Below are positions 1,351 to 28,810 of a stretch of DNA of 64,000 nt, one piece after another. Origin of the DNA: Isoetes taiwanensis (Eukaryota; Streptophyta; Lycopodiopsida; Isoetales; Isoetaceae). A model generated the notes under the pieces. The model had not been told where the DNA came from. It made no database searches and was given only the letters and a program-made list of their open reading frames with translations. Where the stretch lies: NCBI GenBank assembly GCA_021234155.1, contig JAJEKV010000044.1, positions 11,988,803-12,052,802 of the forward strand. Direction: 5' to 3'. Both the position numbers and the translations under genes were made by a program. Each line of letters begins with the position of its first letter. Position 1 is the stretch's first letter.

Positions 1351-1355
1351 CCAAT

Positions 1356-1876
1356 TGTGACGACCATACGGATATTCGTATCATACAAACGTTATACTCG
1401 TATGTACAAAAGATGGTCATCACACGGATGCAAAAGGGTAGTTGCACAAAACAGGGTATGAACTCGCAACCTTTCAGGTGCGAGTCACACACTTTTGCCA
1501 AGTGCACTACCAATATTTATTAGAGACATTCCCTCATGTCTTTCTCATATGCGGGGCTGCTTCGAGGAGGTTCTAAAATATTCTAGAACCTACATGCATG
1601 CGCGACACTTGGCACGATCTCATCCATTAAAGTGGCGCGATCCTGACCATTGGCTTAGATACATAAGGAGGCACCTCCTTCTTGTCGAACCATTCCGATT
1701 CAATGCCAGTCTTGAGCCTTCTAGGCATCTATCTCGTGTTCCTGCTTGCCTTCGGGCCATTGCACTCTTGATTCCTGTTCATATATCAGATTCTTTGCCG
1801 ATCTTGGCATATTTCTTCCGTATTTCTTGCGTATTTTCCACGTGCTTTCCTTCATTTCACGTAGGTTCATTGAACA
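1356..1876 (+). repeat. Chromovirus LTR, copy A
   Basis: It begins TGTGACGACC and probably ends ...GAACA. It matches the LTRs at 12501, 17768 and 19160 over about 500 bp. The preceding five bases are CCAAT, and the same five bases follow the 3' LTR at 18278. That supports these ends as TG...CA with a 5-bp target duplication. The end coordinate is an inference, because I could not recognise a primer binding site after it. Confidence 0.7.
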
Positions 1877-10689: not shown

Positions 10690-12500
10690 GGCTGGGCAGT
10701 GCAGGTCATCTACCTTGTAGATAGGGACAACTCTGTTAGTGGTCCACTGGAAGGAGGGACATTCCTGTAACGCCTTCTGGTACTATGGACGGCCCTGCCT
10801 ACTTGAGCAACTCTGCCTGCATGCTATCCAGGTCTGGCGCTTTCCCATTGGAAAAACACTGTACGCCCTGGACCACAACTGCCTCTATGATTTCTGGTGC
10901 CAGGCCTTCCTGCGGGAGTAATGTTGCTCTTGCACTCTGCGGATCATAGAGATACTGCAACTAATGCTTCCACTGCTCGGAAGTGATGTTCTCTGTAGGC
11001 TATACTGGCTTTCTGAGCACCCTTCCTTTGATGTCATGTAATGTACTTGGCTTTCTTAGCTTTAAGAAAAGCACGTAGAGTATGATCTATGACCTGGAAG
11101 AGCCAGCATTTGTGTTTGTTGCACTCAGCATCAAACCACTGGTTACGTGAGAAGGTTTCAGTCCCTGAGGTTTGTAGAGGGCGACTTCTCCCAGTAGTCC
11201 TAAGCATGTCATATAGTTGGCTCGTCTATTACTTCAGCTAGGGTGTTGCAAAATTCCTGTCAAGTCATATGTGAGCATCCGGGCATAAGCCTCTGTATAT
11301 AATCCAATCGCAGCTGAGGCATGCGAGGACCTATCATACAAGGGGCTCGAATAGTCTGCCAAGCCAGCTGCAAGTAAAGTGGTAAGTGGTCTGAATTGAC
11401 CTTCTCATCCCTACTATCGGTTCCCACTCGGAAGTGCTTGGCCATACGTATATCCTACTCAGCCACCAACACATAATCCACCATACTTCTGCCCCCTGCC
11501 TGCAAGTGCGCTTGCGGGAGGATGGCCATGTGCTAGTCCATTGCAAATTACCAGGTCAAAGATGCTGCAAAGCAAAAGCAACTGCCTACTATAGCACGTG
11601 ATCTAAGGATGCTCGTGGCTAAGCTCCTTCTGCAGGGTGCAACTGCAACACATCATTAGTCCAGAGCTCAAATCTCATGGGTTGTTCCACCCCTGCCTGT
11701 GCATTCGGTAGAAGGGCCCCGAGGGTTCATAGCATTCGCAACAACATTTGGTGGCCGAAAGATATGCATCTTGCCTCGGATCAATCCTCCAGCTCCCCCT
11801 GCAAACGCTCCTAACTTTGGCCAACTCATGCCTGTGATCTTCCTCTCGTGTTGAAGGCAATCCCCTTCAACTGCTTGCCTGACGCAAGATAGTTGCTCGC
11901 ACGTGCACAATCTGTGATTGTGAATACGAGCTCCAGGAGGAGTCAGGGCACTGGGTGCCATGGCGGCTCGCCTTAAAATGCCCATCGGCGTTCGAAATGT
12001 CATTCGAACGAGGGTCGGCATCTAGGGCCAGTTGATGAGGTTCTCCCCTGCTTCTTCTATTAGACCATGTACCACTACATTATGGCTTCTGCATCTCAAC
12101 CTTTGGAGTCCTCTGATGTCGGGTCAATGCTGACTGGAGCGACGGGTGATGTTTGTGTTTGATGATGTGTGGGTTGTCGCCGGTACCGAGGCAGTGGTGG
12201 CATAGGGCAGATTAGTGGTGCAGCAGTCGACGACCCTGGCTGACCTCATGCAGGCTTTTGGACGTGTGGGACTCGTGGCCTATGCAATGGGCTGTCGTTC
12301 TTGAAGTTTGGAGCTTAGCTTCTGCGGGAATTGTTGCTGCCTTGCCATCTCATGCATCGCTGTAGTTGCTTATGAGCCTCTGCATGGAGCCCTTGCCTTG
12401 TTGGGCAGCGGCTGCCCGCAGCTCTTGCACCTCCCGATCCCGAGCAGTAGAGAGCGTGCTTCGATCCGTAAGCGGAGTCCAAAGACACGGTTCAATGCCA
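10690..12500 (-). pseudogene. LINE ORF2 remnant: endonuclease and linker (copy B)
   Basis: On the minus strand, 11560-11230 repeats the endonuclease motifs of copy A (NSDHLPLYLQLAW). Downstream, at about 11140-10760, comes the region between endonuclease and reverse transcriptase: LRAFLKAKKAKY, LPQEGLAPEIIEAVV and GKAPDLDSMQAELLK. The last is the GKAPGxDG signature that precedes the LINE RT. The frame then ends at about 10690 without the RT palm. The 11148-12500 part is the near-identical counterpart of 1-1350. Multiple stops are present. Confidence 0.7.
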
Positions 12501-13021
12501 CCAGACGACCATACGGATATTCGTATCATACAAACGTTATACTCGTATGTACAAAAGATGGTCATCACACGGATGCAAAAGGGTAGTTGCACAAGACAGG
12601 GTATGAACTCGCAACCTTTCAGGTGCGAGTCACACACTTTTGCCAAGTGCACTACCAATATTTATTAGAGACATTCCCTCATGTCTTTCTCTATATGGGC
12701 TTGCTTTCGAGGAGGTTCTAAAATATTCTAGAACCTACATGCATGCTCGACACTTGGCACGATCTCATCCATTAAAGTGGCGCGATCCTGACCATTGGCT
12801 TAGATACATAAGGAGGCACCTCCTTCTTGTCGAACCATTCCGATTCAATGCCAGTCTTGAGCCTTCTAGGCATCTATCTCGTGTTCCTGCTTGCCTTCGG
12901 GCCATTGCACTCTTGATTCCTGTTCATATATCAGATTCTTTGCCGATCTTGGCATATTTCTTCCGTATTTCTTGCGTATTTTCCACGTGCTTTCCTTCAT
13001 TTCACGTAGGTTCATTGAACA
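12501..13021 (+). repeat. 5' LTR of the chromovirus (copy B)
   Basis: Matches 1356-1876 almost base for base apart from a few short clusters. Its first bases (CCAGACGACC) have lost the TGTG seen in the other copies. The ~500-bp LTR contains an antisense tRNA-like segment (see findings). Confidence 0.75.
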
Positions 13022-13148
13022 TGAATCCCTTATCGGTTCTTGCTCTCTGACCCTAAGCATTTTTTTGCTCGTGTTAGGTGATTTTATATCTATGGAGGTT
13101 TCGACTTTATTACAGCAGGTCTAGCAGCTTGTTCAAGTATGCCAGCAG

Positions 13149-13990
13149 TTGCAGTTGGACAATAAAAAACTTAAAGAATGTGTTGCTTCACATGAATCTA
13201 CTTCTAGCTCTAGATTAAGGCTATCAGAGCCTAAGATCAGCCTGCCAGAGAAGTTTGACGGCACTCGGTCCAAGCTACGTGGTTTTTTGAATCAGATTAG
13301 GGTTGTGATCCAGCTCCACCCTCATAGATATCTCACGGTCCAGGAACAAGTTGGGTTGATTGGTTCTCTCCTCCTCACAAAACCTCTAAGTTGGTTTGCT
13401 CCTTTATTGGAGAAAGAAGCCCCAGAGCTACAAGATTTTGTTGCTTTTACTGCAGAGTTCGAGGTATACTCTGGAGACACCAATCGTCAGCACACAGCAG
13501 TCACAAAACTTTGCAATCTAAGGCAAGACGCTTGTCCAAATTTCAAGATATGCATCCGAAATTCGTCAAATTGCGATAGATACTGCCTGGATAATGTTGC
13601 ACTTCGAGATTGTTTCCGAAGGGGGTTACGTGAGGATGTCAAAGATATGTTGTTATCTATGGAGGACCCTCAGACTTTGGAAGAAGCCATCAAATTTACA
13701 GTTCGATGTGATAATCGGCTCTTCAACGAGGCGGGAGAAAACGTGAAGCGATCTTTCCAATCACACAAGCGCCTGTAGCTACGCCTCCCCCGGCCTCATC
13801 TGTAGAATTCAACAGGTCCGGACCGGAGCCTATGCAGTTCGAGGACCTTTATCTGCCGCCGAGAAGCAGCGCCGGAGAGAGGCTAATCTTTGCCTCTACT
13901 ATGGAGGAGCTGGCCATATTGCTCGTGTGGATGCCCCCGCGGAAGCGCCCAAATCACCGAAAACTTCGGGGCCTGGCCGAGTACTAGGAG
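13149..13990 (+). pseudogene. Chromovirus gag (capsid and zinc knuckle)
   Basis: A 209-codon open frame (13149-13778) holds the Retrotrans_gag domain: LPEKFDGTRSKLRGFLNQI, then WFAPLLEKEAPELQDFVAF, LCNLRQDA and ALRDCFRRGLREDVKDML. It packages element RNA into particles. After a frameshift, 13880-13990 gives a zinc-knuckle-like CLYYGGAGHIAR with the second Cys replaced by Tyr. A short mismatched patch (CPNFKIC) interrupts the capsid relative to copy A. Confidence 0.8.
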
Positions 13991-14029
13991 TCTCTCTATT
14001 GGCCGCTTTTCATACTCCTTCCACACTTC

Positions 14030-14380
14030 TTGACATGTTTATTCCATCTGGATAAGGTCGCTAAGGCATTTTTCATCTCTATATCATTGAAATCAGAAGT
14101 TGGAAGGTTGGAAGTGTTGGCGCAACTTGATTGTGGTGCAAATGCTTTCTTTATGGATAGTGCATTCGCCAGTAAGCACGCCATCCCTAGAAGCAAGATT
14201 GAGCATCCCCGATTCACGCCAAGTGATTGATGGACGGAGATCTCCTCGGTGCAGTCACAAAATGTAATTGTGGCTTCTTCTTCGTTTTTGTTCGAGGGAA
14301 TTTCTTGTAGTATTTCCTTCAATCTCATCGCTAGCCCACATGCGCCAATAGTCTTGGGTCTGCTCTGGCTCGAGCTACAT
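14030..14380 (+). pseudogene. Chromovirus aspartic protease remnant
   Basis: The frame VLAQLDCGANAFFMDSAFAS resembles the retropepsin active-site loop (D-S/T-G-A), here with Cys after the Asp. It is followed by HAIPRSK and, after a frameshift, NPQIDW, typical of Ty3 elements just before the Pro-rich linker. The flap region is not intact. The same sequence recurs from 19625 in the second element. Confidence 0.6.
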
Positions 14381-14390
14381 AATCCACAGA

Positions 14391-14860
14391 TTGATTGGCG
14401 TACTAGATCATTTTGATTTGCTGGTTCTAACTCTAGTTCCAGTTCATCTGCAGTTTAGGTCTCTGCACCAATATCGACTTCAGTCCGTGCAGTATTGTGG
14501 GCTCCTGATTCCACCCTTGCTGTTCTTGTTCCTACGCTATGTTCTGATGCGACTCTTGCCTCTGCTCCAGTTCATGCCCTAGATTCTAACCATATTCTCG
14601 ATGATGTCCCGACTCCAGCTCTGTGGCGATCATGACAAGCTCCAGCTCAGCCAAGCTCTTGCTCATGCTCCTTGCCTCCGGTTCCAGCTCCTCGCTCTGT
14701 CCCTCGCTCCAGTTCCTATTCCAGTTGCTCCTGCTCCTGCTTCTGTAGAGGCTTCTTCATGCCCTCAGTTTTGTATCTCGAAGATTTCTCTTCGCGGGTT
14801 CGTTAAATCTGGAAGGCAAGATCCAAGTTTAGTATTTGCAATCCAAGTTCACCCGTTAGC
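14391..14860 (+). other. Pro/Ala-rich linker between protease and RT
   Basis: Repeated CCAGTT/GCTCC codons give Pro-Val-Pro-Ala-Pro runs in shifting frames. This is low-complexity spacer sequence of the polyprotein, also seen at 19850-20150. Confidence 0.5.
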
Positions 14861-14879
14861 TAGCTCGGCACCAGTGAAG

Positions 14880-15775
14880 TCTGCTCCAATGCTCCCAGAT
14901 AAATATGATGACTTCTCTGATGTTTTTGACAAAGTTAAGACCAGCAAGGTCCCAGAGCATCATCCACATAATTGTCCTATTGATTTGCAGCTCGAGACAA
15001 TGCCGCCATATGGTCCGATATATGGTCTATCTCCCCTGAGTTGAAGGTTTTGCGGGATTATATTGAAGAGAATCTAGCCACTAGTTTCATTCGACATTCT
15101 CAGTCCCCTGCTGGAGCGTAAAAAAAGAAGGATGATTCGTTGCGTCTGGTCGTTGATTATCATGGCCTCAATAATCAATAAGATCACAGTGCCAAATCGG
15201 TATCCGCTTCCCTTGATCCAGAGTTGTTGGAGCGACTCCAAAATATGCATTATTCTACGAAGATTGATCTTCGGGGTGCCTACAATCTTATCTGGATCCA
15301 AGAGGGTGATGAGTGAAAAACAGCTTTTCGTACTTGGCACGGCCATTTTGAATACATAGTTATGCATTTAGACTTACCAATGCTCCAGTAGTATTCCAAC
15401 ATATGGCCAATAATGTCTTTCGAGAGTTCTTAGACACTTTTGTTATCATCTATTTGGAAGATATTCTTATTTATTCCAAGGCTCTCGAAGAACATGACAG
15501 GCATGTTCGACAGGTCCTTCAGAAGCTTCGTGAGCACGAGTTATATGCCAAACTTGAGAAGTGTCAGTTCGAGCATTATAATATGGAGTTCCTTAGCTAT
15601 CATATCACTTCATATGGGGTCTCTATAGACCCCAAAAAGGTCAGCACTGTTCTGGAGTAGCAAACACTTTCATCCGTTCGAGATGTTCAGTGTTTTCTTT
15701 GGTTTGCCAATTTCTATCAGTGTTTCATTCGGGATTATTTGGAGATTCCCTTCCTTTGACACGCCTCACGGTTAA
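14880..15775 (+). pseudogene. Chromovirus reverse transcriptase
   Basis: Starts LPDKYDDFSDVFDKVK and HNCPIDLQLETMPPYGPIY, the usual Ty3 lead-in. It continues with the palm motifs in broken frames, and at 15403-15660 reads VFREFLDTFVIIYLEDILIY. The catalytic Y-x-D-D is Y-L-E-D here, so the first aspartate of the pair is lost. HDRHVRQVLQKLREHELYAK and KLEKCQFE follow. Stops occur in the fingers region (around 15118 and 15315). Confidence 0.85.
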
Positions 15776-16250
15776 GGACGTGCCATTTGAATGGAGTATG
15801 GAAGTAGAATCTGCTTTCGTTACTCTGAAGCATGCTTTTATCATGGCGCCAGTTCTTGCATGATCCTTCGCGCCCATATGTTGTCGAAGCAGATGTTTCT
15901 GATTTTTCTCTTGGTGGGATCCTGTCACAGGAGGGGGGTGATCATGAATTGCATCCAATTGCCTAATCACTCATGGAAGTTTCAGGCTGTTGAAATCAAC
16001 TATCCCATTTATGACAAGAAGTCGTTGGCAATAGTGGATTCTTTCGAGGACTAGAGACGTTTCCTGGAGGGATCTCTTTACAAGTTCACAGTCTATACAT
16101 ATCATCGAAATCTAGAATATTTTCAGTCTGCTCGAGTGCTCAACCGTCGCCAGGCCCGGTGGCATATTCAAGTATTATCCCGTTTGATTTCGTGATCAAG
16201 TACCATCTTGGATCCCTCCAAGGAAAGTTTGATGCCTTGTCTCGACGCTC
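15776..16250 (+). pseudogene. Chromovirus RNase H
   Basis: The frames contain a degenerate D-x-S-D...GG-x-L-S-Q region near 15880-15935. Then come NYPIYDKKSLAIVDSFED (the KELLAIV motif), [20 protein letters not shown] (NLEYF) and [20 protein letters not shown] with RR (the end of the connection and RNase H region). This is the Ty3 RNase H that removes the RNA template. Several stops are present. Confidence 0.75.
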
Positions 16251-17270
16251 CTACCTTGAGCCCAAGCTAGGTGCTCCTGCATTTGATCAACAATCACATG
16301 TTATTCTAGGGCCTAATCGGTTCCAGCTTATGGCCCTCACTTTGTTCGAGAGGCCTCATGATACGATCTTGTTGGAGTCTGTTCGACCATCTCTGCCCTT
16401 CAACCCATTGGCTCAAGATGTATTCTCACACCTTGGCCCTGCATCATCTTCTCAGCAAATGCGATCAGACTATGATCGTTTTGAGGTTCGAGATGGACTC
16501 CTGTTCCGTGATGGGCTTCTGTATGTGCCAGATGGTTCTCCAGGCTTCGGGTTCTCCAGGCTTGCCATGATTCACCTATGGTCCGGGCTTCGCCGCCACG
16601 TCGAAGCCTTATTCGATCCTGTGACATCTGTTGTCGAGCGAAGGTTCCAAGGCATCTTCCTCATGGCCTTCTTCAGCCACTACCAGTATCAGATGGACTT
16701 TGGAAGAGCATTTTTATAGACTTTATTCCGGAGCTGCCACTCTCTCGGGGTTATGATGTCATCATGGTTGTTGTTGATCGTTTCTCTAAGACAACTCATT
16801 TTATTCCCTGCAACATCACCATCACCAGTGAGCGAACATTGGGTCTTCTTCTTCATGAAGTAGTCAGACTTCACGGCTTGCCCGATACTATCGTCAGCGA
16901 TCGTGGACCGCAGTTCGTTGCAGGTTTTTGGAAGCGGCTCACTAACATCTGGTCATCATCCAGAAAGTAATGGGCAGGTAGAGTGCACTAATCAGACTCT
17001 GGAGCAACGTACTTTATCAGTTATCAATAGGATGATTGGGTTGATTAATATCTTCCATTGGCTAAGTTTGCCGATAATAACTCAATACATGCTTCCACTG
17101 GCCAGACTCCATTCTGTCTGAACTCTGGTCAGCATCCCCGTTGGTCCCTTAGTGTCGCTGCAATGACTCTGTCAATCCTAGTATCGAGTCTCGACTTGAG
17201 AAACTCCAAGCTCTTCAATCTGATCTTCAACATCATCTTCACCGAGCACAGGAACATTATCGGCATTTGC
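16251..17270 (+). pseudogene. Chromovirus integrase
   Basis: Contains the linker FRDGLLYVPDG, a damaged H2C2 zinc finger (SCDICCRAK near 16625) and the rve catalytic core. The core reads IFIDFIPELPLSRGYDVIMV (first Asp), VVDRFSKTTHFIPC, and LHGLPDTIVSDRGPQFVAGF with W (second Asp). The glutamate motif HHPESNGQVECTNQTLEQ is in a shifted frame. All three acidic residues are visible, but frameshifts at about 16570 and 16945 separate them. Confidence 0.85.
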
Positions 17271-17274
17271 CAAT

Positions 17275-17752
17275 TTGCATCGGCAGGAAGCTCCTAAATT
17301 TCACGTTGGTGACCTTGTCCAGCTTCTTCGTAGGAACCTCCCTACCTCATGTCCCTGCAACAAGCTTGACTATTGTTGCCTTGGTCCTCACCGGATCACG
17401 GATCAGGTCAGTAATGTGGCATTCCGGCTCGAGCTCCCTCCAGTTGTTCGGCTCCATCTAGTATTTCATGTTTCTCTATTGGAGCCCTACACAGTTAATA
17501 CTTTTCCGGATCGCGTTCCTCCACCGCCACCACCAGTAGAAATTAATGATCATGAGGAGTTCGAGGTTTGAGAGATTTTGGACTCCAAGTTTCTTTATCA
17601 ACGATTGTATTACTTTGTCGCCAAGTGATAGAACCTGGGAGCCTGCCGGAATCTGACTAATGCTCCTGATAAAATTGTGGAGTTCCACCGACGTTACCCG
17701 GATAAGCCAAATTTGAGTACTCTGACCCCAGCTCCGAGGATTCGTCGCCATC
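17275..17752 (+). pseudogene. Integrase C-terminus and chromodomain-like tail
   Basis: FHVGDLVQLL, a GPHRITDQVSNVAFRLELPP segment, and LVFHVSLLEPY followed by a Pro run. Then come HEEFEVREILDSKFLYQRL and YFVAK, RRYPDKPN. The EVxxILDSxxxR...Y.V pattern is that of the chromodomain fused to chromovirus integrases, which guides insertion to modified chromatin. Two stops lie at about 17625. Confidence 0.75.
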
Positions 17753-17753
17753 A

Positions 17754-17767
17754 TAGGAGGGGGATGG
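17754..17767 (+). other. Polypurine tract
   Basis: AGGAGGGGGATGG immediately precedes the TGTGATGAC start of the 3' LTR, as expected for the plus-strand primer. Confidence 0.7.
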
Positions 17768-18278
17768 TGTGATGACTATATGGATATTTGTATCATATGA
17801 ACATTATACTCGTATGTACAAAAGATAGTTATCACGTGGATGCAAAATGGCAGTTGCACAAGACAGGGTTTGAACTCGCAAGTGCGAGTCACACACCTTT
17901 GCCAAGTGCGCTACCAATATTTATTAGAGACGTTCCCTCATGTCTTTCTCATATGCAGGGCTGCTTCCAGAAGGTTTTAGAATATTCTAGAACCTACATG
18001 CATGCGCAACACTTGGCATAATCTCATCCATTGGAGTGGCGCGATCCTGACCATTGGCCTAGATCTATAAGGAGGCACCTCCTTCTTGTCGAACCATTCC
18101 GGTTCAATGCCAGTTTTGAGCCTTCTAGGCATCTGTCTCGTGTTCCTGCTTGCCTTCAAGCCATCGTACTCTTGATTCTTGTTCATATATCAGATTCTTT
18201 GCCGACCTTGGCATATTTCTTCCATATTTTTTGCGTATTTTCCACCTTTTTTTCTTGTTTTCGGGTAGGTTCATGACA
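17768..18278 (+). repeat. 3' LTR of the chromovirus
   Basis: Starts TGTGATGACT and ends ...CATGACA. It differs from the 5' LTR by scattered substitutions and a missing ~10-bp stretch near 17880. This divergence exceeds that between copies A and B of the 5' LTR, suggesting insertion well before the segmental duplication. CCAAT follows directly. Confidence 0.8.
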
Positions 18279-18283
18279 CCAAT

Positions 18284-19159
18284 AAGGCCGTTTCATGTGC
18301 CTCGACCCTACTTTGAAGGGCCTCTTAATTGTGACCGGCTCTCTTCAAAGGCGACCTGGACAATTTGTAATATGGTAGCACTCTCCCCAGCTTCTGATAG
18401 AAAGCGAGAGATGGTTGTCATCATCTCCCCGCCAAAGACGCTAAGTTTGCTTCTTTTGTCATGGCTTCCATGGCAAAGGTCGTGGAGTCCATGCGGCCTC
18501 AGAGCTTAGCGAGACCATGCTTGTTCGCCGCGCTCGGCGTCGCCAAGCAGATGATGTCTTCCATCTGTTGTGTGTGGGTCTCTATCTCTGCAATCCGTTG
18601 TTTCTCCATTGCCAATTGCCTTCTAAGCACCTCGAGCACTAAGGACTAAACCTCTTGTATCAGACCTGCAATTCGGGTAATGTTACTCTCAATTCTTTCC
18701 TCGAGTTATTTCCACGCCTTTGTCAATGCCTAGTTTGCTAGCGCGCCGGCTACCCATTGGACCGTGCTTGTTTTGCTGCCTCGGCGCGCCAGCGGATGAT
18801 GTCTTCCATCTATTATGTGTGGGTCTCTATCTCTGCGATCCGTTGTTTCTCCATTGCCAATTGCCTTCTAAGCACCTCGAGCACTAAGGACTAAACCTCT
18901 TGTATCAGACCTGCAATTCGGGTAATGTTACTCTCAATTCTTGCCTCGAATTATTTCCAGGCCTTTGTCAATGCCTAGTTTGCTAGCAGTCAGCTACCTA
19001 CTAGACCGACTTCGTTGATTAAGTCTTCCTGCGCGCCGCCCTTCTCATGGAAGAGGGTTCTCCCTTGCCTATTCCATCTGGTCTGGGCCATTTTCGTGGT
19101 GGCCTATCTGCTTGGTCCACTCAGAGAGCTCATAATATGACGGGGCATCAGGTTGCAGG
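18284..19159 (-). pseudogene. Decayed minus-strand coiled-coil ORF with internal duplication
   Basis: A minus frame reads FEARIESNITRIAGLIQEV, stop, then SLVLEVLRRQLAMEKQRIAE with IETHTQQMED. This is a heptad-rich, coiled-coil-like stretch. It occurs twice, at about 18990-18795 and 18745-18550, because a ~245-bp unit is tandemly duplicated. Further down come MDSTTFAMEAMTKEA and RVEAHETALL. If the CCAAT target duplication is right, this DNA is what the chromovirus inserted into. It could then be the 5' (ORF1-like) part of the LINE whose endonuclease is at 11560. That link is an inference. Confidence 0.45.
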
Positions 19160-19624
19160 TGTGGCATCCATATGCACATTCGTATTATACAAAGATTATA
19201 CTCGTATATACAAAAGATGGTCGTCACATGGATGGGAAAGAGTAGTTGCACAAGACAAGTTTTGAACTCACAACCTTCTAGTTGCGAGTCATACACCTTT
19301 GCCAAGTGCGCTACCAATATTTGTTGAAGACATTCCCTCATGTCTTTTTCATATGTGGGGTTGTTTCCAGGAGGTTTCAGAATATTCTAGAACCTACATG
19401 CATGCGTGACACTTGGCATGATCTCATCCATTGGAGGGGCACGATCCTGACCGTTGGCCTAGATTTATAAGGAGGCACCTTCTGCTTATCGAACCATTTC
19501 GGTTCAACGCGAGTCTTGAGCCTTCTAGGCATCTATCTCATGTTCCCGCTTGCTTTTGGCCCATTGTACTCCTGATTCTTGTTCATATATTAGATTCTTT
19601 GCCGATCTTGGCGTATTTCCTCCG
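19160..19624 (+). repeat. Partial LTR of the second chromovirus
   Basis: Aligns with 17768-18235 (same GTATTATAC, antisense tRNA-like segment and CTTCTAGGCATCTATCTC block). It breaks at CTCCGT, where AAGCACGCCATC of the pol region begins. The junction marks a deletion of the LTR end, gag and protease. Confidence 0.75.
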
Positions 19625-20393
19625 TAAGCACGCCATCCCTAGAAATCAGGTTGATCATCCCAGTTCTATCGAAGTGATTGATGGACGGGAATCTCCTCAG
19701 GTGCAGTCACAGAATCTACTGCACCTCTTCAGGTTTTGTTCGAGTTCAATCTCATCGCTAGCCCATATGTGTCGTAGTCTTGGGTCTGCCATGGCTCGAG
19801 CTACATAACCCACAGATTGATTGGCATATTAGATCATTTCGATTTGCTGGTTCTAGCTCTAGTTTTAGTTCATCTGCAATTCAGGCCTCCGGCACCAAAG
19901 ATCGACTTCAACCGCAAAGATCGTGGGCTCCCCGATTGGCCCCCGTTGTTCCCGCTTTCTCGCGGCCCCTCCTCTGATTTGACTCTTGTCTTTCCTCCAG
20001 TTTATGCCCCAAATTCTGCCCATGCTTTCGATGATGTCCCAACTCCAGTTCTTGCTCAAGTTCCCACTCCCGCCCCCGCCTCCCGCCTTTGCTCCCCCTG
20101 CCTCCCGCCTCCCCGCCCCCGTAGAGGCTTCCTCATGCCCTAAGTTTTGTATCTCGAAGATTTCACTTCATGAGTTTATACGAGTTTATTAAATCTGAAA
20201 GGTAAGATCCAAGTTCAGTATTTGCAATCCAGGTTCATCCATCGGCTAGCCTCCACTGGTGAAGTCCGCCCCAATGCTCCTAGATAAATACTCCCAGATA
20301 TGGCGACTTCTCTGATGTTTTTGACAAAGTCAAGGTCAACAAGCTTCTAGATTTGCAGCCCGACACAATGCCACTGAGATTTGCCCTATTGAT
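19625..20393 (+). pseudogene. Protease end and Pro-rich linker of the second chromovirus
   Basis: Matches 14171-14995 in order: the HAIP segment, a Leu-Gly-x-x-W-x-E-L-H-N-P-Q-I-D-W stretch near 19775, a Pro/Ala-rich low-complexity spacer, and the FSDVFDKVKV lead-in to RT. Very C-rich runs at 20065-20120 interrupt all frames. Confidence 0.55.
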
Positions 20394-21190
20394 TTGCAGC
20401 CCGGCATAATGCTACCATATGGTCCGATATATGGTCTCTCTCTCGCTGAGTTGAAGGTTTTACGGGATTATATTGAAGAGAATCTAGCCACTGGTTTCAT
20501 TCGACATTCTCAGTCCCCTGCTAGAGCGCCTATCTTCTTCGTCAAAAAGAAGGATGATTCTCTGTATTTGGTCGTTGATTATTGTGGCCTCAGCAAAATC
20601 ATAGTGCGAAATTGGTATCTGATTTCTTTGATCCCAAAGTTATTGGAGGGACTCCAAGGTGCGTGTTATTTTATGAAGATTGATCTTCGAGGTGCCTACA
20701 ATCTTATCCGGATCCGGGAAGGTGATGAGTGGAAAACAACTTTTCGTACTCGATATGGCCATTTTGAGTATATAATTATGCCTTTTGGGCTTATCAGTGC
20801 TCCAGCAGTATTCCAGCATATGGCCAATGATGTCTTCTGGGAGTTCTTAGACACTTTTATTATCATCTATTTGGATGATATTCTTATTTATTCTAAGATT
20901 CTCGAAGAACATAAGAGGCATGTTTGACAGGTCCTTCAGAAGCTTCGTGAGCAAGGGTTATATGCCAAACTTGAGAAGTGTCAGTTCAAATAGGATAATG
21001 TGGAGCTCCTTGTCTATCATATCACTCCACATGGAGTCTCTATGGATCCTGAAAAGGTCAGCACTGTTCTGGAGTGGCAAACACCTTCCTCCGTTCGAGA
21101 TGTTCAGTGTTTTCTTGGGTTTGCCAATTTCTATCGGCATTTCATTCAGGAGTTTTCAGGGATTGCCCTTCCTTTGACATGCCTCATGGT
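20394..21190 (+). pseudogene. Reverse transcriptase of the second chromovirus
   Basis: A 177-codon open frame (20394-20927) contains [76 protein letters not shown] and IIIYLDDILIYSK. The Y-L-D-D catalytic pair is intact, unlike the element at 15450. A stop follows KRHV. The thumb and connection continue at 21000-21212 (HGVSMDPEKVSTVLEW, FLGFANFYRHFI). This is the best preserved RT in the window but has no complete polyprotein around it. Confidence 0.85.
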
Positions 21191-21215
21191 TAAGGACGTG
21201 CCATTTGAGTAGAGT

Positions 21216-21700
21216 GTGGAAGCGGAATCTGCTTTCGTTACTCTGAAGCATGCTTTCACCACGGCACCCGTTCTTGCTCATATAGGTCCTTTACGGCCAT
21301 ATGTTGTCGAAGGAGATGCTTCTGATTTTGTTCTTGGTAATATCCTGTCACAGGAGGGGGATGACCATGAATTGCATCCGATTACCTATCACTCACAGAA
21401 GTTTCAGGTTGCTAAAATCAACTATCCCATTTATGACAAGGAGTTGTTGGCGATAGTTGATTCTTTCGAGGAGTGGAGACGCTTCTTGGAGAGATCTCCT
21501 TATAAGGTCACAGTCTATACAAATCATTAAAATCTAGAATATTTTCAGTCTGCTCGAGTGCTCAACCGTCATCAGGCCCGGTGCCATACTCAAGTACTAT
21601 CTCGCATTGACTTTATGATCAAGTACCATCCTGGACCCCTCCAAGGGAAGCCTGATGCCTTGTCTCGACGCTCCTGCCTTGAGTCCAAGCCAGGAAATCC
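21216..21700 (+). pseudogene. RNase H of the second chromovirus
   Basis: ESAFVTLKHAFTTAPVLAHI, then VVEGDASDFVLGNILSQEGD (active-site DASDF...LSQ), HPITYHSQKF, YPIYDKELLAIVDSFEEWRR and VYTNH, a stop, and [18 protein letters not shown]. The D-x-S-D and E-L-L-A-I motifs are intact. One internal stop lies near 21528. Confidence 0.85.
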
Positions 21701-22125
21701 TGCATTTGATCAGCAATTACAGGTTATTCTAGAGCCTGATCAGTTCCAACTTATGGCCCTCACTGTATTCGAGAGGCCCTATGATACAACCTTGTTGGAG
21801 TTTGTTCGAGCATCTCTGTCCTCCGATCCAGTGGCCCAAGATGTATTTTCACACCTTGGCTCTGTATCATCTTCTCAGCAAATGCGATTGGACTATGATC
21901 ATTTTGAGGTTCGAGATGGATTCATATTCCGTGATGGGCTTCTGTATGTGCCAGATGGTGCTTCTAGGCTTCGACTTCTCCAGGCTTGCCATGATTCACC
22001 TATGGCCGGACACTTTGGAGTAGCCAAGACTCTTGAATTTATTAGTTGAGAGTATTGGTGGCCTGAGCTTCGTCGCTTTGTTGAATCTTTTATTCGATCC
22101 TGTGGCATATGCTTGAAGGTTTGTG
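21701..22125 (+). pseudogene. Integrase N-terminal zinc-finger region
   Basis: Continues GLLYVPDGASRLRLLQACHD and SPMAGHFGVAKTLEFIS, then a stop. Next come EYWWPELRRFVESFIRSCGI and C, the H-x(3)-H...C-x(2)-C integrase zinc finger that binds LTR ends. Similarity ends just after the finger, leaving no catalytic core. Confidence 0.75.
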
Positions 22126-22424
22126 CAAATACTGAACTGTTGAATAGCTTTGGCTTATACAAATATATGGATGTTTAGCGGGCTTCCCTAAAGAGAAGTG
22201 CAACATTTCCCGAATAAAGTGATACCATTATATAAAAGGGGAGACCAACAGAATCCAAGAAATTACAGAACCATAATGGTCACCTAGCAACACGTCACTC
22301 CCAGACGTCTATTTAAATTTGCAAAAACGCATGGCATCAAAACATTAACTTAGATTGCGGCCCAAAAAAATTCCACGCTGACGAAAATAAATAAAAATTT
22401 AGATAGATAGTTGCAATAAAATGC
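22126..22424. other. Spacer between chromovirus and YR retrotransposon
   Basis: AT-rich DNA without a recognisable gene. The phrase AATAAAATGCCAATT at its right edge abuts the terminal repeat of the next element. Confidence 0.5.
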
Positions 22425-22470
22425 CAATTCTGATGAGTGACTCGTCTAGACGGGAAAATCGACAGTTATA
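22425..22470 (-). repeat. Terminal split direct repeat B2
   Basis: GAGTGACTCGTCTAGACGGG followed by AAAATCG matches B1 over about 30 bp. It should be the right terminus of the element. Confidence 0.6.
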
Positions 22471-23194
22471 GATAGGGATATCTTTCATCACAACAATATA
22501 TACAAAGTTTGGAATATCCAAGTGGGGTAGCTGACCATAGGAACCTTATTGGACTACCCCTGAAGAATAACAGGAACCAAGTCCAGGTCGCATGTGGAGA
22601 CAGTGTCGAATTTGGAAGGGCCAAAAGAAAGGTGCCATGCGAGGGCTTATCATCGGGATAAAAAACCCTGCCCTTTCGCCAACCTTATATAGAGAAAATG
22701 CAACGTGAAAAAGTCCTCGACTCAATGCACGAAGCGGATGCAATGGAGTGAGCTTGCTCTAAGTGATCAAAAAAGCTCAAAAAAGAACCCGTTAGGTGTG
22801 AGAAAAAAAAAAGCTGACTGGATGCATGAAAAAATGTTAACAAGATGTCCATTAGGTATAAGAAACCTATAAATGAGAAAGCAGATACCATGTACGTAAC
22901 TCCACCCCAAGAAAAAGGGAGGGGCTGGTCAGGCGCGCCATGCGAAACAAAAAAACTCCCATTGTGGAGGGGCTTTTCACGCGTGCCACGCAATACAAGA
23001 CCTGGGGTTGTTCATGCATGCCACGCAAAAAAACAAATCCTCCTCATCTAGAGGGGTTGGTCACGCGCACCATGCAATAGCAAAAACTGATAAAATACCA
23101 TTACTTAAAAGAAATATATACACTTGCATACAAACATGGGAACAAGAGATTTGGGGGAGGGGGGGCGCTTAGGAGGAAAAAATGGTTCACGACA
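22471..23194. other. Spacer between repeats A2 and B2, with degenerate short repeats
   Basis: No coding signature. At 22920-23085 there are four imperfect ~45-bp units around GGGGGTTGGTCACGCGC..CATGCAA, differing mainly at CG dinucleotides (CG/TG/CA), as expected for methylation decay. Confidence 0.5.
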
Positions 23195-23345
23195 CCGCCG
23201 CGGAGAAGACGCCGATAAGGATGAAGGTATCAAGATGGATCAAGATGGATCAAGATTATTGAACGGATCAATAATGGCGATCTAACGGTGTCGAATCACT
23301 GGCATTCTAGTGAGAGACTCGTCTAGACGAGGAAAACCGGTTGAT
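23195..23345 (-). repeat. Adjacent split direct repeats B1 and A2
   Basis: A2 (23195-23306) matches A1. B1 (23307-23345, with GTGAGAGACTCGTCTAGACG) matches B2 at 22432-22460. They abut at CTGGCAT/TCTAGTGAG, reproducing the junction that would form if both element ends were joined in a circle. B1 contains the perfect palindrome CTCGTCTAGACGAG. Confidence 0.65.
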
Positions 23346-24303
23346 CCAAAGAGAACTTCCCTTTCAAAGACCAAGATGGTGGAAGAGGGAGAGCTGTTGG
23401 TGCAAGTTGGGAGTGACATAACAAGCATGAGCCAAAGGAGAACGCCATTGTCCATGAGTATGTGCAATCTCATTGTCAAACGAGTCGCCATCAGAGAAGC
23501 ACCCCTCGACGACCTGCATGAGTCCAATAATGGGGGGTCTAAGCTGATTGTCGTCAAGCAGTGCTGCCACCATTGCCTTGCAGTGTAATAAGAGAGGGGA
23601 CGAAGGGAAGAAGGGGAAAGACGAAAAAGAGGGCCACCACAAGCTGGGTCAGATAAATGGAATGCGCCACAAAAGATGAAACGTTGTAAAAGGGCAACAT
23701 GACAAGTGAATGATGGAAGTCTAGCCGCAACGACTGAATAGCCTCTAGCAGACTGACCTCGTTTGGAGCGACGAATGAAGATGGACAAGTGTGAAAGTTC
23801 AAAAGTAATATCATGCCAATTTAGGGCCAATGCCTTAGAGATACACAAAAATGTGGTGAAAAATAGAGTGATGAACGTGGCTTTTGAAAGGTCTGTAAAA
23901 GAGGCAGATGGAGAGGCAAAACGTATGACAATGGACCGCACATGGTCAGGCAGCAAAGGTAGATGAGGGCAAGAAGGGAAGGCATGACGAATACCTGATT
24001 GATGAACCAAAAGTGGTAGCGGCGAGGAGACGGGGGAAGGTAGATTGAGGAGTTGGTGGAAAAAAGCAATGGCTGCGGATGCAGAAAGGAGCGAGGACGT
24101 GGAAGATTGGTTGTCGTGAAGGGATGCAAAAAAGGCAGTAATAGTAATAGAAGATGCAGGGAGATAAGGGCAGACATACAAGAGCACCAGGCGGCAAAGC
24201 GGCAAAAAATGGCAGAATACGCACGAAGTGTAGCGGGCCCGTGAGAGGAGAGCGGGAATGGCAAGGTAGAAAAATACAGGTGCAGTTTACTAAAGGGTAC
24301 AAG
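23282..24303 (-). pseudogene. Tyrosine recombinase of the YR retrotransposon
   Basis: The N-terminal core-binding part reads STLPFPLSSHGPATLRAYSA and IFCRFAAWC (24250-24160). The catalytic part (307-codon frame 24205-23282) reads LCISKALALNWHDITFELSH, which is the L-R-I-S-E-A-L-x-L-x-W-x-D-I block with Arg replaced by Cys. It then has FIRRSKRGQSARGY, GGPLFRLSPSSL and RSSRGASLMATRL (the H-x-x-R-R-G-x-A-S box, His lost). In another frame at about 23440-23390, WRSPLAHACYVTPNLHQQL carries the nucleophile tyrosine. The enzyme would integrate a circular cDNA by site-specific recombination. Catalytic residues are damaged and the frame is broken near the end. Confidence 0.75.
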
Positions 24304-24439
24304 CCAAAACATGGCTGAAAAAAACAAAAAGATATATAGTCAGGACATTGCTAGAAAAGACAACGAAGCGCAAAGACTGCAACATGTCAACGACAACCAG
24401 CAAAAGAAAAGGGAGCCCAAGATGTGCCCAGCCATAAAA

Positions 24440-25110
24440 GAGACCATCAGGGAGCAGAAGGCCAAAATAAAATAATACGGATGATGCGAGCATGGCAGGC
24501 AGCGGCATGGGCCAAAAATCGAGGAACTAAAGGTGGGGGAGGAAAACAATAATTATTAAATACATGCAAATCATAAGTGAATGCGTCTGGAGGAATGCGA
24601 TGAGGGTAGGCAAAATAAGTGTTAAATACAAGAAGTTTGGGATTGAGAGGGATGCAAAACGGTCGACATGATGCGGCCCCCAAGCGCGATCTATGTGCTG
24701 AAACACCAAGAGGCTAAAGCAAACTCATCCATTTGAGGCCACCCTAGAGACATAGTCAGCTCACTCATTTTTTGAGCGTGGAATCCAAAGTGGGTCAAGC
24801 GAGATTGAGCAGTGAAAACAAAATAAAAAAATCTCAAGAGAAGAAATTGCAAGTCCGGAGAAAAAGAATCGCCTTTGTGAAGGAGCAAAGAAACATTAAG
24901 GTTATCATCACGAACGGTAAGATGACGAGCAATCAAAGAAGAGGCAAAGATGTTTAAGAATATGGTAGAAAGCGAAGAGCTCATGCCAGATAGAAGAGCG
25001 AGCAAGTCAGAAGGGTAAAAAATGCCAGAAAAGTCAGCACGAGGTCGACATAGGATCTGCAACCATCCTCCCCAACCAAAAGCACTGGCATCGAACCCAA
25101 TAAGTGCAGA
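24440..25110 (-). pseudogene. RNase H and downstream domain of the YR retrotransposon
   Basis: The frame from about 25105 reads LIGFDASAFGWGGWLQI (RNase H first Asp and the GWGGWL motif). It then reads SSSLSTIFLNIFASSLI, VRDDNLNVSLLLHKGDSFSP (a TDNxN-like segment with Asp) and DLQFLLLRFF. Beyond that it has EFAL, FNTYFAYPHRIPPDAFTYDL with HVFNNY, FPPPPLVPRFLAHAAACHAR and IIRIILFWPSAP. The last block resembles the region after RNase H in DIRS-group elements that ends P.WPSAPWW. Confidence 0.75.
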
Positions 25111-25489
25111 AGGGTCGCGATTCTAAGCATTGGAGCGAGAGGCTAAGGATGTCACAACTGACTCCCAAAGCAGGGTTTCCAGACGGGCCAAAGGTCTAAG
25201 AGAAATTGGAGCATCCCAATTAAGAACTGATCGCAGAAAGATCTCAATGCAGAAACAAGAGAAAAAAAAAAAACAATCCGTAAAAATTGAAGCTGAGCCA
25301 GGCGGCATAATGTAAGCACTGAAGATGAAAAGACAGCAGAAGAAAGATGGAAAAATTTCTGCTACCCGCTAAAGAGTCCAAAAGAAGGCCCAAGAAGATG
25401 GTGCAATGGGATACACGCAAACGACATTTCGTCCAAGCTAAAAGAAAACCTGCAGACTGTAGATCCTAAATGACTGAGTACTGAAGGGG

Positions 25490-26110
25490 ACCGGGATCAT
25501 CCTATGTTTAAAAAAAAAAAGTCATCCATATAGGGTATACAACGAATGCATGAACTACGCCAATGACGGACAAGCGGTTTGCATGAGTTTAGCGAAGACG
25601 AATAGAGCAGAGGATAAGCCAAAAGGGAGCATGATGAAGACAAAAATTTGATTGTCAAGATGGAATCCCAAAAATGTGTAATGTGGTGGCCAAATGGGGA
25701 CACGATGATAGCCAAACTTCAGGTCGATTGTGCAGAGAAAATCATTGGGTTGCCGAATGGCAATGGCATTAGAGATGGATTCATAACGAAAAGAGGGCAC
25801 CTATAGCCAGGAATTCAAATATCTCAAATCCAAAATTAAATAAAATTTATCAACACCTTTAGGTACGACCCCGAGAGGAGAACAAAAAAAGGGGCGAGAG
25901 CCGACTAATTGCAGGGCCCAGTGCAAAGCAGGTCGATAATGGCAGAGCGGGCAAAATCAAAGTGACCCCGGAGGGATGATAAATTGGGTTGAAAAAAAGG
26001 TTCTGAAGGTGGGGAATTGGCCCAAGGAAGAGCATAACTATGTTGGATCCAAGAGAGGACAACCAGATTTGCTGAAATAGACTGCAAAAAAGGAAGGGCA
26101 TCAGAAAGGC
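25490..26110 (-). pseudogene. Reverse transcriptase of the YR retrotransposon
   Basis: Minus frames give VVLSWIQHSYALPWANSPPS and FFQPNLSSLRGHFDFARSAI with DLL, the DIRS-type lead-in. Then come PSFRYESISNAIAIRQPNDF, LCTIDLKFGYHRVPI (palm D in IDLK.GYHHVPI), LPFGLSSALFVFAKLMQ and, in a shifted frame, CIPYMDDFFF at about 25535-25520. Y-M-D-D is the catalytic pair. The word order PRFRYES...FLCTIDLKSGYHHVP is characteristic of DIRS, Ngaro and PAT RTs and differs from Ty3 RT at 20394. Confidence 0.85.
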
Positions 26111-26317
26111 GATTGCAGACTGAGGTTTTGCTGCAATGGCATCGGCCTCCATAGGATTAAATGGTAAATGGGGGAGAGGCTCAGCAAAAAGATGACAATC
26201 TGAAAAATCAACCCATAATCTCTATTATTATAAACAACATTACAAACTGAAGATAATGTAAAAAAAACTGATTATATAAAACACCTGACTATGTACAGCA
26301 AAAAACCAACAAATCAA

Positions 26318-27346
26318 TCAAGATGACCACGCTGGCACATGGTCCCGAGGTGGCGGAGGAGAGGGAGCGGGGAGTGCATGTGGCATGGAAAAAAAGGGGG
26401 TGATCGGAGCAATAGCGTTATGTGTAAGTGCGGCTCGAAAACAAGTATTGGCAAGGTGCTCAGGTTTGCCATAGATGAAGAAACGAATAGTGGTGGAGGA
26501 ACAAGATAAAGCAATGGGTAAGGAAGAAGTAGCAGAAAAACAGGATTGGCGTTGGAGACACCGGTCGCGTGCAAGTTTCTTGGCTTGGTGCAAGCATTTG
26601 GATTCTTCAATGTTTAAGCCTAGGGCTTGAGAACCATCAAAGTGGAGGGCCACCTCGTAACCATGCTGGTCGGCGATCGCCATAAATTTCATTTGCTGGT
26701 CAACCAAGTGCTTACCATCTTCAAGCATTTGAAAAACATCATCAGGAATAGGCCAATCGAAGATAAACGTGCCTGAATCCAGGAAAAACTATCTTCCATG
26801 CAGCAAACTCGTAATAATGGCGGGTAGAGTCGCGCTCAAACGTCGGAGTATGCCGTGGAGTTCTCTCGGAAGGAGATCGAGTTGGGCGTGCAACGGTATC
26901 TGCTGAGTTAAGGTGGATTGAAGGTTGTTCAAAGTTGTACGTTGAGATTGCATCTCGTGAAGCAACTGGGTTAAAGGATCCGAGGAAGGAGCCAAAAACG
27001 GGGCATGAAACACTGGAGTAGATGCAAGACAAGCAGAAGGAAAAGCGGACGAAGGAAAGACGTGTGGAGGGACGGAAGATTGGGAAGGAACGGGCATGGT
27101 AGGGTAAAAAGTTGGGGAGGAACGAGATGGAACAGATAAGGTAGGATAAAAAGGGAGAGAAGCACATGGCCAAAATGAACGAGGAAACCTATGGTAATGA
27201 AGCCGAGGACAGAACTGGGAGGAGGAGGTCGGCTCTCTCAGATCGAATCTAAAAAGAAGCCTCACAAGATCCGGCAGGCTCCAAAAGATGGCGATGAGGC
27301 GAGTGGGAGAGACAGAAAAAGAAGGGGTGGGAGAAGACTCCGGCAA
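26318..27346 (-). pseudogene. Gag-like protein of the YR retrotransposon
   Basis: Two open frames, 27346-26789 and 26728-26318, are joined by a frameshift. The first is Pro/Ser-rich and then helical (LTQLLHEMQSQRTTLNNLQS). The second has QQMKFMAIADQHGYEVALHF and NIEESKCLHQAKKLARDRCL, like the Lys-rich middle of DIRS-type gag. It then has FFIYGKPEHLANTC, a zinc knuckle in which the first two Cys have become Phe and Tyr. A role in RNA packaging is expected from the family. The start codon choice is uncertain. Confidence 0.6.
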
Positions 27347-27494
27347 TCTGAGGAGGAAGTAGGATTAACCATCCGCCAGAGAAGAGTCACTATGGCGGAA
27401 AGAAAGACCAGAGGCCCAAGATGGCGAGCATGGTGAAGCCAAGAAAAACTAGAGTGAAGTTGATGAAGGAAACGCGGGCACGCGATTAATCGCA

Positions 27495-27606
27495 CTTCCT
27501 CGTGGAGAAGACACCGATAAGAATGAAGGGATCAAGATGCATATAAATAGTCTCGTCTCTCCCCAGAATGGTGATCCGACGATGTTGAATTGCTGGCATG
27601 AGTAAT
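27495..27606 (-). repeat. Terminal split direct repeat A1
   Basis: Shares GGAGAAGAC.CCGATAAG, GATGAAGG.ATCAAGATG and TTGAAT..CTGGCAT with A2 at 23195-23306. Its outer end (GCTGGCAT) should be the left terminus of the element. Confidence 0.65.
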
Positions 27607-28810
27607 TTCAAATTTAGAGCACTTTTCAATAAAATGTCAAAATATGGGTTCAATAGCAAATAAATTATAAAAATCGCAAATGTAATACAAACCAAAATGG
27701 CAAAAGTGAGGCGTCCACAGCATGCATTCAGATCCAAGACAGTTTCTTCTGAGTTGACGAGCAACATTCCAGTTGTTGATAGCAGATTGTAGAACTAGTG
27801 GAGCATTAGTCGCATTAAACTATAAAAGGCGTAGATTTCAATGGAAAAGAGATAAAGGATGAGTGGCTATTCTGGAATTCTTTTCTTCTTATACTCTCAA
27901 TCATGATTAATGGAATTCTACGATTCGCTAAATGATCATTGTGTGTGCAATTGCTTGTGTCATTCGTTTCTTATTGTTCATCAATTCTTTTATCACAATA
28001 AAATGCCAATTTGCTTTTACGTTGGATTCCTTTGAGTAGATTTGTGATATTTTATCTTTGACCTAAAAGCCCCATTTCTATTCTGCACTAAGCTTGAGTA
28101 ATCAAAGGAGAAGGTTGGTGGCTGGCTTTGGGTGCTTACGAATGGCTGGATAATTTTGAGGTAAGTTCCAACTTTGCTATCTTTGGGTAATCTAGTTGTT
28201 GCCTATGACAATGAGTGTGAGCGGCTCTTAAGAGGTGGTCAGTTCTTGTATTTGCTTGGTTTGGTAGAATGAAGATGGTGCTGAGAAAACGTAGCCATCA
28301 TGTGCTTCTAAGGGTACAACCAAGTATGACCAAAGATTTGTGTTACCTTTATCTCATGTCACCATTTATTGTGACAATCAGACTGAGCAAGGATTTTAGA
28401 TATCATCTAAGACAACGGACTTTGTGTTAGTTCACATATGGATCCAGCTAGGCACATGTTCATTAACTCATTGTTTTCCTCGCAACCAAGTTGCAGAGAT
28501 GCTTCATAAAACTGCTTGAAGGTGTTCCAGCTCTATGGCATAATGAAAGCAATTATTATTGACAGAAATTTTCCAGCAAATTATCCAGCAGAATGGCAAT
28601 GATCAGTCAGCATCCTGGAGACTTAAAAAAGGATAAAACAATGTAACCGAGATGTAGGGATAGAGAAAAAATTATTTTTTGTTCCAACCCTGTACTGTGA
28701 GAAGGACTAAAGGGCTTTCTGGACAAACTAGGCTAGTTGTGACAACAACCTAGTCTCATAGACGCAAACAATCTTTTGCATTCCCCTTGCTACTCACCCC
28801 ATTGTCAACT
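27607..28810. other. Intergenic DNA
   Basis: AT-rich, with no frame or splice pattern that I can support. It separates the YR retrotransposon from the 3' end of the histidine phosphatase gene. Confidence 0.5.

What the first reader, a model, noticed from the sequence alone, without database searches (positions are those of the whole stretch)
22425..27606. Tyrosine-recombinase retrotransposon in a plant genome
The minus strand carries gag, a DIRS-type RT (FLCTIDLKFGYHRVP, YMDD), RNase H (DASAFGWGGWL) and a tyrosine recombinase (LCISKALALNW, CYVTP) instead of a DDE integrase. Established: YR retroelements are common in some animals, fungi and algae (e.g. Kangaroo in Volvox), and are seldom discussed in land plants. 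The sequence directly shows RT and YR in one unit. That this is a land-plant lineage of PAT/Ngaro type is inference.
Basis: partly seen in the sequence, partly recalled or inferred. Interest (0 to 1): 0.85.

Follow-up and report, generated by a model that had tools for sequence, protein, structure and literature searches.

The report
Tyrosine-recombinase retrotransposon in a quillwort
A worn-out copy of a jumping element that pairs a reverse transcriptase with a Cre-like recombinase lies in the genome of a land plant, probably a quillwort, where related copies with long open genes also occur, although a recent review placed this kind of element, among plants, only in green algae.

Summary
On the minus strand, 22427-27599 is a 5173-bp decayed tyrosine-recombinase (YR) retrotransposon: gag remnant, reverse transcriptase, RNase H, Dam-like region and YR, flanked by split direct repeats A1 ... 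B1-A2 ... B2, the PAT-type layout. B1 and A2 share two bases (AT). The copy is dead: stops, frame changes, lost catalytic residues. The genome (1.658 Gb, 1110 sequences) fits the published Isoetes taiwanensis assembly in size. It holds 42 further matches to the YR stretch (some are pieces of one copy). Related families there have open genes: one 6535-bp copy has open gag and pol, a YR frame with all catalytic residues (though shorter than its relatives' at the C-end), A repeats 167/169 and B repeats 83/85 identical. The YR profile matches Cre in the PDB. RT trees nest the window element among Isoetes elements, then Klebsormidium, then Closterium, apart from volvocine and animal elements. A 2022 review leaves DIRS out of land plants; other plant papers carry DIRS labels, but ten searches listed no structural description that I saw. 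New member of a known kind in an unexpected host; vertical inheritance likely, not proven.

The parts
27501..27599 (-). A1: 5' split direct repeat, left end of the element (starts ATGCCAG)
   Evidence: Local alignment with A2: score 85, none of 500 shuffles reach it
26321..27364 (-). gag remnant (conserved block about 26561-26846)
   Evidence: Two open stretches; tblastx to the gag side of L054 at element positions 754-1039
25887..26138 (-). conserved N-terminal block of pol before the RT core
   Evidence: tblastn of P0001, P0002 and P0004; tblastx to L052, L053 and, in part, L054 and L055
25224..25899 (-). reverse transcriptase, broken by stops and frame changes
   Evidence: PF00078 E 0.01 on one piece; P0001 39% identity over 172 residues
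24760..25122 (-). RNase H (DASAFGWGG)
   Evidence: Alignment with P0001-P0005
24435..24736 (-). Dam-like methyltransferase region (WGPHHVDRFAS ... FPPPP)
   Evidence: Aligned with the PF05869 part of P0001, P0002, P0003 and P0005, and its start in P0004
23367..24255 (-). tyrosine recombinase, frames broken; first catalytic R and HxxR residues replaced in the frames as read, K, H(GQW) and Y kept
   Evidence: P0007 score 144 against shuffle maximum 54; alignment with Isoetes YRs
23304..23366 (-). B1: inner copy of the 3' repeat, with palindrome CTCGTCTAGACGAG
   Evidence: Local alignment with B2: score 56, none of 500 shuffles reach it; palindrome read
23199..23305 (-). A2: inner copy of the 5' repeat; overlaps B1 by AT
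22488..23198 (-). tail between A2 and B2, with four copies of a 33-nt GC-rich repeat (22918-23082)
22427..22487 (-). B2: 3' end of the element (ends AGAAT)
   Evidence: the same end in 8 of 20 other fetched copies

Best explanation
A dead copy of a PAT-type tyrosine-recombinase retrotransposon from a lineage that is present, with some copies whose genes are open, in a land plant (by assembly size, the quillwort Isoetes taiwanensis). Proposed working when alive: element RNA running from A1 to B2 is packaged with gag and copied by RT/RNase H. The split repeats let the cDNA be joined through the B1-A2 stretch, so that the B2 end and the A1 end become one circle junction. The YR then recombines that junction with a short matching core in the target (AT here, AA in the well-kept copy), without a DDE integrase. 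Shown here: domain order, split repeats, exact abutment of B1 and A2, shared 3' ends in other insertions, homology of the YR to Cre, relatives with open genes. Inferred from the published model for such repeats: RNA packaging, circular intermediate, recombination step.
For: A1/A2 and B1/B2 far above shuffles and abutting with a 2-base overlap. Colinear homology to RT-RH-Dam proteins. YR homology. 43 matches of the YR stretch in the same genome, self included and some being pieces of one copy, 17 others covering at least 890 of 1022 bases at 72-92% identity. B2 ends at or within three bases of AGAAT in 8 of 20 fetched copies, with different flanks apart from shared-flank duplicates. 34 of 49 scored pol matches have no stop. 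Copy with both repeat pairs at G000:C1048:2273503-2280037. Trees.
Against: Pfam alone does not place the YR above cut-off, in the window (E 0.092) or in the 331-aa relative (E 0.0044). The Dam domain is below cut-off in the Isoetes pols tested (E 0.032 and 0.12, no match in a third). The window copy's two flanks resemble each other (score 33; 2 of 2994 random pairs as high), which a mechanism without target duplication does not predict; the young copy's flanks do not (887 of 2974 as high). B2 was not found above shuffles in 9 of 20 copies, and 3 gave no usable B1-A2 stretch. YR motifs were seen in only 7 of 20 loci with the best pols. No labelled PAT, Kangaroo or Ngaro sequence was available for the tree. 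No circle, transcript or movement was observed. The host name rests on assembly size.
Confidence: 0.93

Rival explanations
1. A Ngaro- or VIPER-type YR retrotransposon rather than PAT type; these share the split direct repeats.
For: The same repeat order A1-B1-A2-B2 is published for Ngaro and VIPER (PMC6681497 passages).
Against: A Dam-like region follows RNase H, and PMC3266345 says Ngaro and Viper lack it (passage). Nearest named relatives are streptophyte and volvocine algae and animals.
Confidence: 0.05
2. The lineage entered the plant by horizontal transfer, for example from an aquatic streptophyte alga, and was not inherited from the algal ancestor.
For: The host is aquatic if it is Isoetes (PMC8566536, abstract in listing); no other land plant could be searched here; patchy distribution of such elements is reported (PMC3266345 abstract in listing).
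Against: Two deep Isoetes clades and a tree that follows host order: Isoetes 100/98, plus Klebsormidium 99/97, plus Closterium 98/92.
Confidence: 0.3
3. Contamination of the plant assembly by algal or other DNA.
For: [quoted passage not shown]
Against: Copies lie on many large scaffolds (up to 53 Mb) and differ in age. The window copy lies on the same scaffold as Ty3/gypsy elements and an open PPR gene.
Confidence: 0.02
4. An ordinary Ty3/gypsy element beside an unrelated recombinase fragment.
For: Ty3/gypsy fragments lie next to it at about 19.2-22.0 kb.
Against: Pol and YR sit between matched split repeats and in the same order in other copies. The RT tree separates it from that gypsy RT by a branch of about 10. 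Pfam on ten pieces of the element showed no DDE integrase, and the gypsy LTR-like repeats of the window do not recur inside it.
Confidence: 0.01

Closest known systems
PAT-like elements with TOC and Kangaroo (nematodes, chlorophyte algae; PMC3266345 passages)
   Same: Split direct repeats, RT-RNase H-Dam-like pol, tyrosine recombinase; RT relatives in Gonium, Astrephomene and Steinernema
   Different: Host is a land plant; the RT forms a separate streptophyte clade; YR lies downstream of pol on the same strand, while PAT elements can carry it inverted (PMC3266345); one Isoetes clade has a CCHC zinc knuckle in gag
Reverse transcriptases of Klebsormidium nitens (P0043) and Closterium (P0059, P0060)
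   Same: Closest named RT relatives; RT in all three, RNase H match in P0043 and P0060, Dam match in P0043
   Different: Streptophyte algae, not land plants; their repeats and YR were not examined here
DIRS1-like elements
   Same: RT/RH with methyltransferase domain plus YR (PMC3266345)
   Different: They have inverted terminal repeats and an internal complementary region; here split direct repeats
Cre recombinase (phage P1)
   Same: YR profile of five Isoetes frames matches Cre, E 8.9e-9 (the aligned stretch stops before the Tyr); R173, K200, H289, R292, W315 and Y324 invariant in the five; that these are the Cre catalytic positions is recalled
   Different: Cre is a phage enzyme; here the enzyme is carried by a retrotransposon, and the window copy has lost R and HxxR residues

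Membership tests
PAT-like YR retrotransposon | Split direct repeats in order A1 - genes - B1 A2 - B2 | tested here: met
   Window copy and the C1048 copy; B1, A2 and B2 in 8 of 20 further copies
PAT-like YR retrotransposon | Tyrosine recombinase instead of DDE integrase | tested here: met
   Pfam alone below cut-off
PAT-like YR retrotransposon | RT/RNase H of the DIRS order followed by a Dam-like domain | tested here: met
   Colinear alignment with PF05869-bearing relatives; direct Pfam match in three Isoetes pols below cut-off or absent
PAT-like YR retrotransposon | RT clusters with labelled PAT and Kangaroo references | tested here: inconclusive
   No labelled references; volvocine and nematode proteins served as proxies
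PAT-like YR retrotransposon | No target-site duplication; short shared core at the ends (recalled for YR elements) | tested here: inconclusive
   Young copy: no flank similarity, core AA; window copy: core AT but similar flanks. Empty-site searches did not complete
DIRS1-like | Inverted terminal repeats with internal complementary region | tested here: not met
   None of the 6 inverted pairs found joins the two ends of the element; split direct repeats instead
Ngaro / VIPER | No methyltransferase domain | tested here: not met
   Dam-like region present
Ty3/gypsy | RT inside Ty3/gypsy, LTRs, DDE integrase | tested here: not met
ALOG-donor DIRS element (PMC3537659) | ALOG-type N-terminal domain in the YR | tested here: not met
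   Pfam at E up to 1 found only PF00589 in the one YR frame scanned, 331 aa

The most novel reading that the evidence does not exclude
Land plants inherited an active lineage of PAT-type YR retrotransposons from their streptophyte algal ancestor, and it has moved recently, perhaps still moves, in a living lycophyte; the reported absence of such elements from streptophytes is a sampling artefact, and other plant lines lost them later.
Probability: 0.55. Interest if true: 0.75.

Novelty: new member of a known kind. Interest (0 to 1): 0.62.

Why it matters
A survey of 274 genomes reported no DIRS1-like elements in streptophytes (PMC3266345, passages), and a 2022 review left DIRS out of land plants (PMC9033089, passage). 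Copies with open genes and nearly identical repeats in a land plant go against that, extend recombinase-based retrotransposition to a vascular plant, and give a datable, polymorphism-testable system. They also bear on the proposal that the plant ALOG regulators came from a DIRS-type recombinase in an early streptophyte (PMC3537659, passages): elements of that order are present in streptophytes, although the YR tested here lacks the ALOG domain.

Tried and rejected
Pfam on ten single window ORFs gave only marginal matches; full-length relatives were needed. A scan of IMG/VR with the RT profile gave three contigs with short RNase H matches, not elements. A target-site duplication was considered because the window flanks resemble each other, and set aside because the young copy shows none. 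An inverted repeat around the AT core was seen by eye and dropped as too short to count. The ALOG link was tested by Pfam and not met. Contamination and Ty3/gypsy readings were rejected as above. The genome-wide count of B1-A2 junctions and the empty-site test could not be run.
Full report
WHAT IS THERE. The minus strand of 22427-27599 holds one 5173-bp element. Its ends are defined by two pairs of direct repeats: A1 27599-27501 with A2 23305-23199 (score 85; shuffles mean 26.6, max 47, 0 of 500 reach it) and B1 23366-23304 with B2 22487-22427 (score 56; max 40, 0 of 500). The two pairs were aligned separately, yet B1 ends and A2 begins in the same AT. Flanks read ACTC|AT GCCAG at the left and CAGA AT|TGGC at the right.

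CODING ORDER. Within the element, on one strand: gag remnant, pol N-terminal block, RT, RNase H, Dam-like region, YR. The frames change several times and carry stops. A read of the pieces with X at breaks found six proteins (only the 7993 candidates sharing most words were scored): P0001-P0005 at E 3e-31 to 4e-47, with RT and Dam matches in all five (PF05869 E 3e-7 to 0.05); P0006, at E 2e-5, matches in the RT. The YR read found one protein, a XerD-type recombinase (P0007, E 8e-6); its Smith-Waterman score of 144 compares with a maximum of 54 in 1000 shuffles. Against the Isoetes YRs the window copy, in the frames as read, has lost the first catalytic Arg and the HxxR residues, while Lys, His (HGQW) and Tyr remain.

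THE HOST. The window lies in G000, 1,658,258,908 bases in 1110 sequences. PMC8566536 (passages only) reports Isoetes taiwanensis at 1658.30 Mb, 204 scaffolds plus 909 contigs. The identification is by size and is an inference. An open 886-aa PPR gene with a weak E motif (below cut-off) at 56814-59474 fits a land plant. The held main texts of that paper and of the I. sinensis paper (PMC10541799, passages) contain no 'DIRS'; their supplements were not readable here.

OTHER COPIES. The YR stretch has 43 matches in the genome, self included and some being pieces of one copy; 40 of 207 first-look candidates were scored, so this is a lower bound. I fetched 20 of the places. One (L012) shares flanks with the window copy and so is probably a duplicate of the same insertion, although its 5' junction differs; L014 and L022 also share a 3' flank. 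Eight of 20 copies have their own B2 above 100 shuffles; in each the repeat reaches AGAAT or stops at most three bases short of it, and the flanks then diverge apart from those shared-flank pairs; 9 show no B2 above shuffles and 3 gave no usable B1-A2 stretch. A second 5' end was found clearly in few copies: seven carry extra sequence of up to about 1 kb near element position 226, and most fetched stretches end before their A1.

RELATIVES WITH OPEN GENES. The Klebsormidium RT (P0043) finds 49 matches, from 48 scored of 9288 first-look candidates; 34 of 49 have no stop inside, two of these being pieces of one frame. Of the 20 loci fetched, 17 have an open pol of at least 550 aa, 7 have a YR frame with HSxRR and HxRW motifs, and 4 have both with YR of at least 280 aa; of these four, L042 lacks the N-terminal part in that frame and L047 has an internal gap. 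L050 has open pol (646 aa) and a YR of 364 aa that aligns throughout; its repeats were not examined. The copy at G000:C1048:2273503-2280037 has both repeat pairs, A 167/169 and B 83/85 identical, gag 299 aa with a zinc knuckle, pol 662 aa, and YR 331 aa with R, K, HxxR, HGRW and Y, ending shortly after the Tyr and earlier than in L033, L047 and L050. Its core is AA. Its YR has six relatives on other scaffolds at 93-97% identity over the whole query, among 45 matches from 40 scored of 100 candidates. With 6.5e-9 substitutions per site per year, the rate used for the fern in PMC6890710 and only assumed to apply here, repeat divergence gives about 1 My for this copy and 20 My for the window copy.

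YR FOLD FAMILY. A profile of five Isoetes YRs matches Cre in the PDB at E 8.9e-9, the aligned stretch stopping before the Tyr; with the window read and P0007 added, 1.4e-18. Pfam PF00589 alone gives E 0.0044, below cut-off, for the 331-aa frame. That the conserved residues correspond to the Cre catalytic set is recalled.

PHYLOGENY. From 126 proteins I took eight named or chosen ones and the first 45 others of at least 600 aa, the 17 open Isoetes pols, the window pol and the window's gypsy RT: 72 rows. For the careful tree I dropped the gypsy RT, the DIRS1-like P0006 and Steinernema (long branches) and thinned to 36 rows, 9 of the 17 Isoetes pols included. Bootstrap/SH-aLRT: window plus Isoetes 100/98, plus Klebsormidium 99/97, plus Closterium 98/92. 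Isoetes with volvocines is rejected (AU 3e-52). The order matches host relationships, which favours inheritance, but only one land plant is sampled, the root is set by hand, and the window row has an odd letter make-up and a long branch. The labels DIRS1-like (P0006) and Kangaroo-like (volvocines) are recalled or inferred.

PRIOR KNOWLEDGE. Passages of PMC3266345 (274 genomes; DIRS1-like elements undetected in streptophytes; PAT-like in chlorophytes and nematodes; Ngaro and Viper lack the methyltransferase; PAT have split direct repeats), PMC9033089 (DIRS not included for land plants), PMC3537659 (no complete ALOG-type element known in streptophytes), PMC6681497 (repeat order A1-B1-A2-B2), PMC5890265 (dinoflagellate DIRS elements with A-coding-B-A-B repeats; a Klebsormidium gypsy with DIRS-like repeats). 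Against novelty: DIRS labels occur in plant papers, for example 361 elements totalling 45 kb in Ceratopteris (PMC6890710), 8.26% of Cunninghamia (PMC13415678), a class in PlantRep (PMC9035001), single-digit counts in a plant TE atlas (PMC8729191), and a review that lists DIRS among plant retrotransposons (PMC11630846); I saw passages only. Searches listed no structural description with RT, YR and split repeats in a land plant that I recognised; most listed papers were not opened, and subscription papers, supplements and Repbase were not searchable.

MECHANISM. Shown: parts, order, exact repeat abutment, recurring 3' ends, open genes in relatives. Inferred from the published model for such repeats: RNA template, cDNA circle through the B-A junction, YR-driven insertion at a two-base core. 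Unsettled: the window copy's flanks share about 39 nt of similarity (2 of 2994 random pairs score as high), while the young copy's do not (887 of 2974).

None of them changes the odds.

Noticed in passing
window 22380-22426 and 27600-27649: The two flanks of the element resemble each other over about 39 nt (TGACATTTTATTG / TGGCATTTTATTG); 2 of 2994 random pairs score as high. Unexplained, possibly insertion into a local repeat.
   Followed up: partly
window 22918-23082: Four copies of a 33-nt GC-rich repeat in the tail between A2 and B2.
   Followed up: no
L013, L014, L017, L020, L021, L022, L031: These copies share extra sequence of up to about 1 kb near element position 226 that the window copy and L012 lack.
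   Followed up: partly
L019 702-1200: An A repeat followed by tail sequence and then gag-side sequence, as if the element were permuted or joined in tandem.
   Followed up: no
window 2-2906 and 11142-14059: A 2.9-kb stretch is duplicated at 93.6% identity; it holds one of the LTR-like repeats.
   Followed up: no
window 12504-22009: Decayed Ty3/gypsy copies, with about 500-bp LTR-like repeats at 12504, 17768 and 19168, and another at 1356.
   Followed up: no
window 56814-59474 (-): Open 886-aa PPR gene with a weak E motif.
   Followed up: no
L001-L003 (IMG/VR contigs of 38-78 kb): Short matches to the RNase H part of these pol proteins in contigs filed as viral.
   Followed up: no
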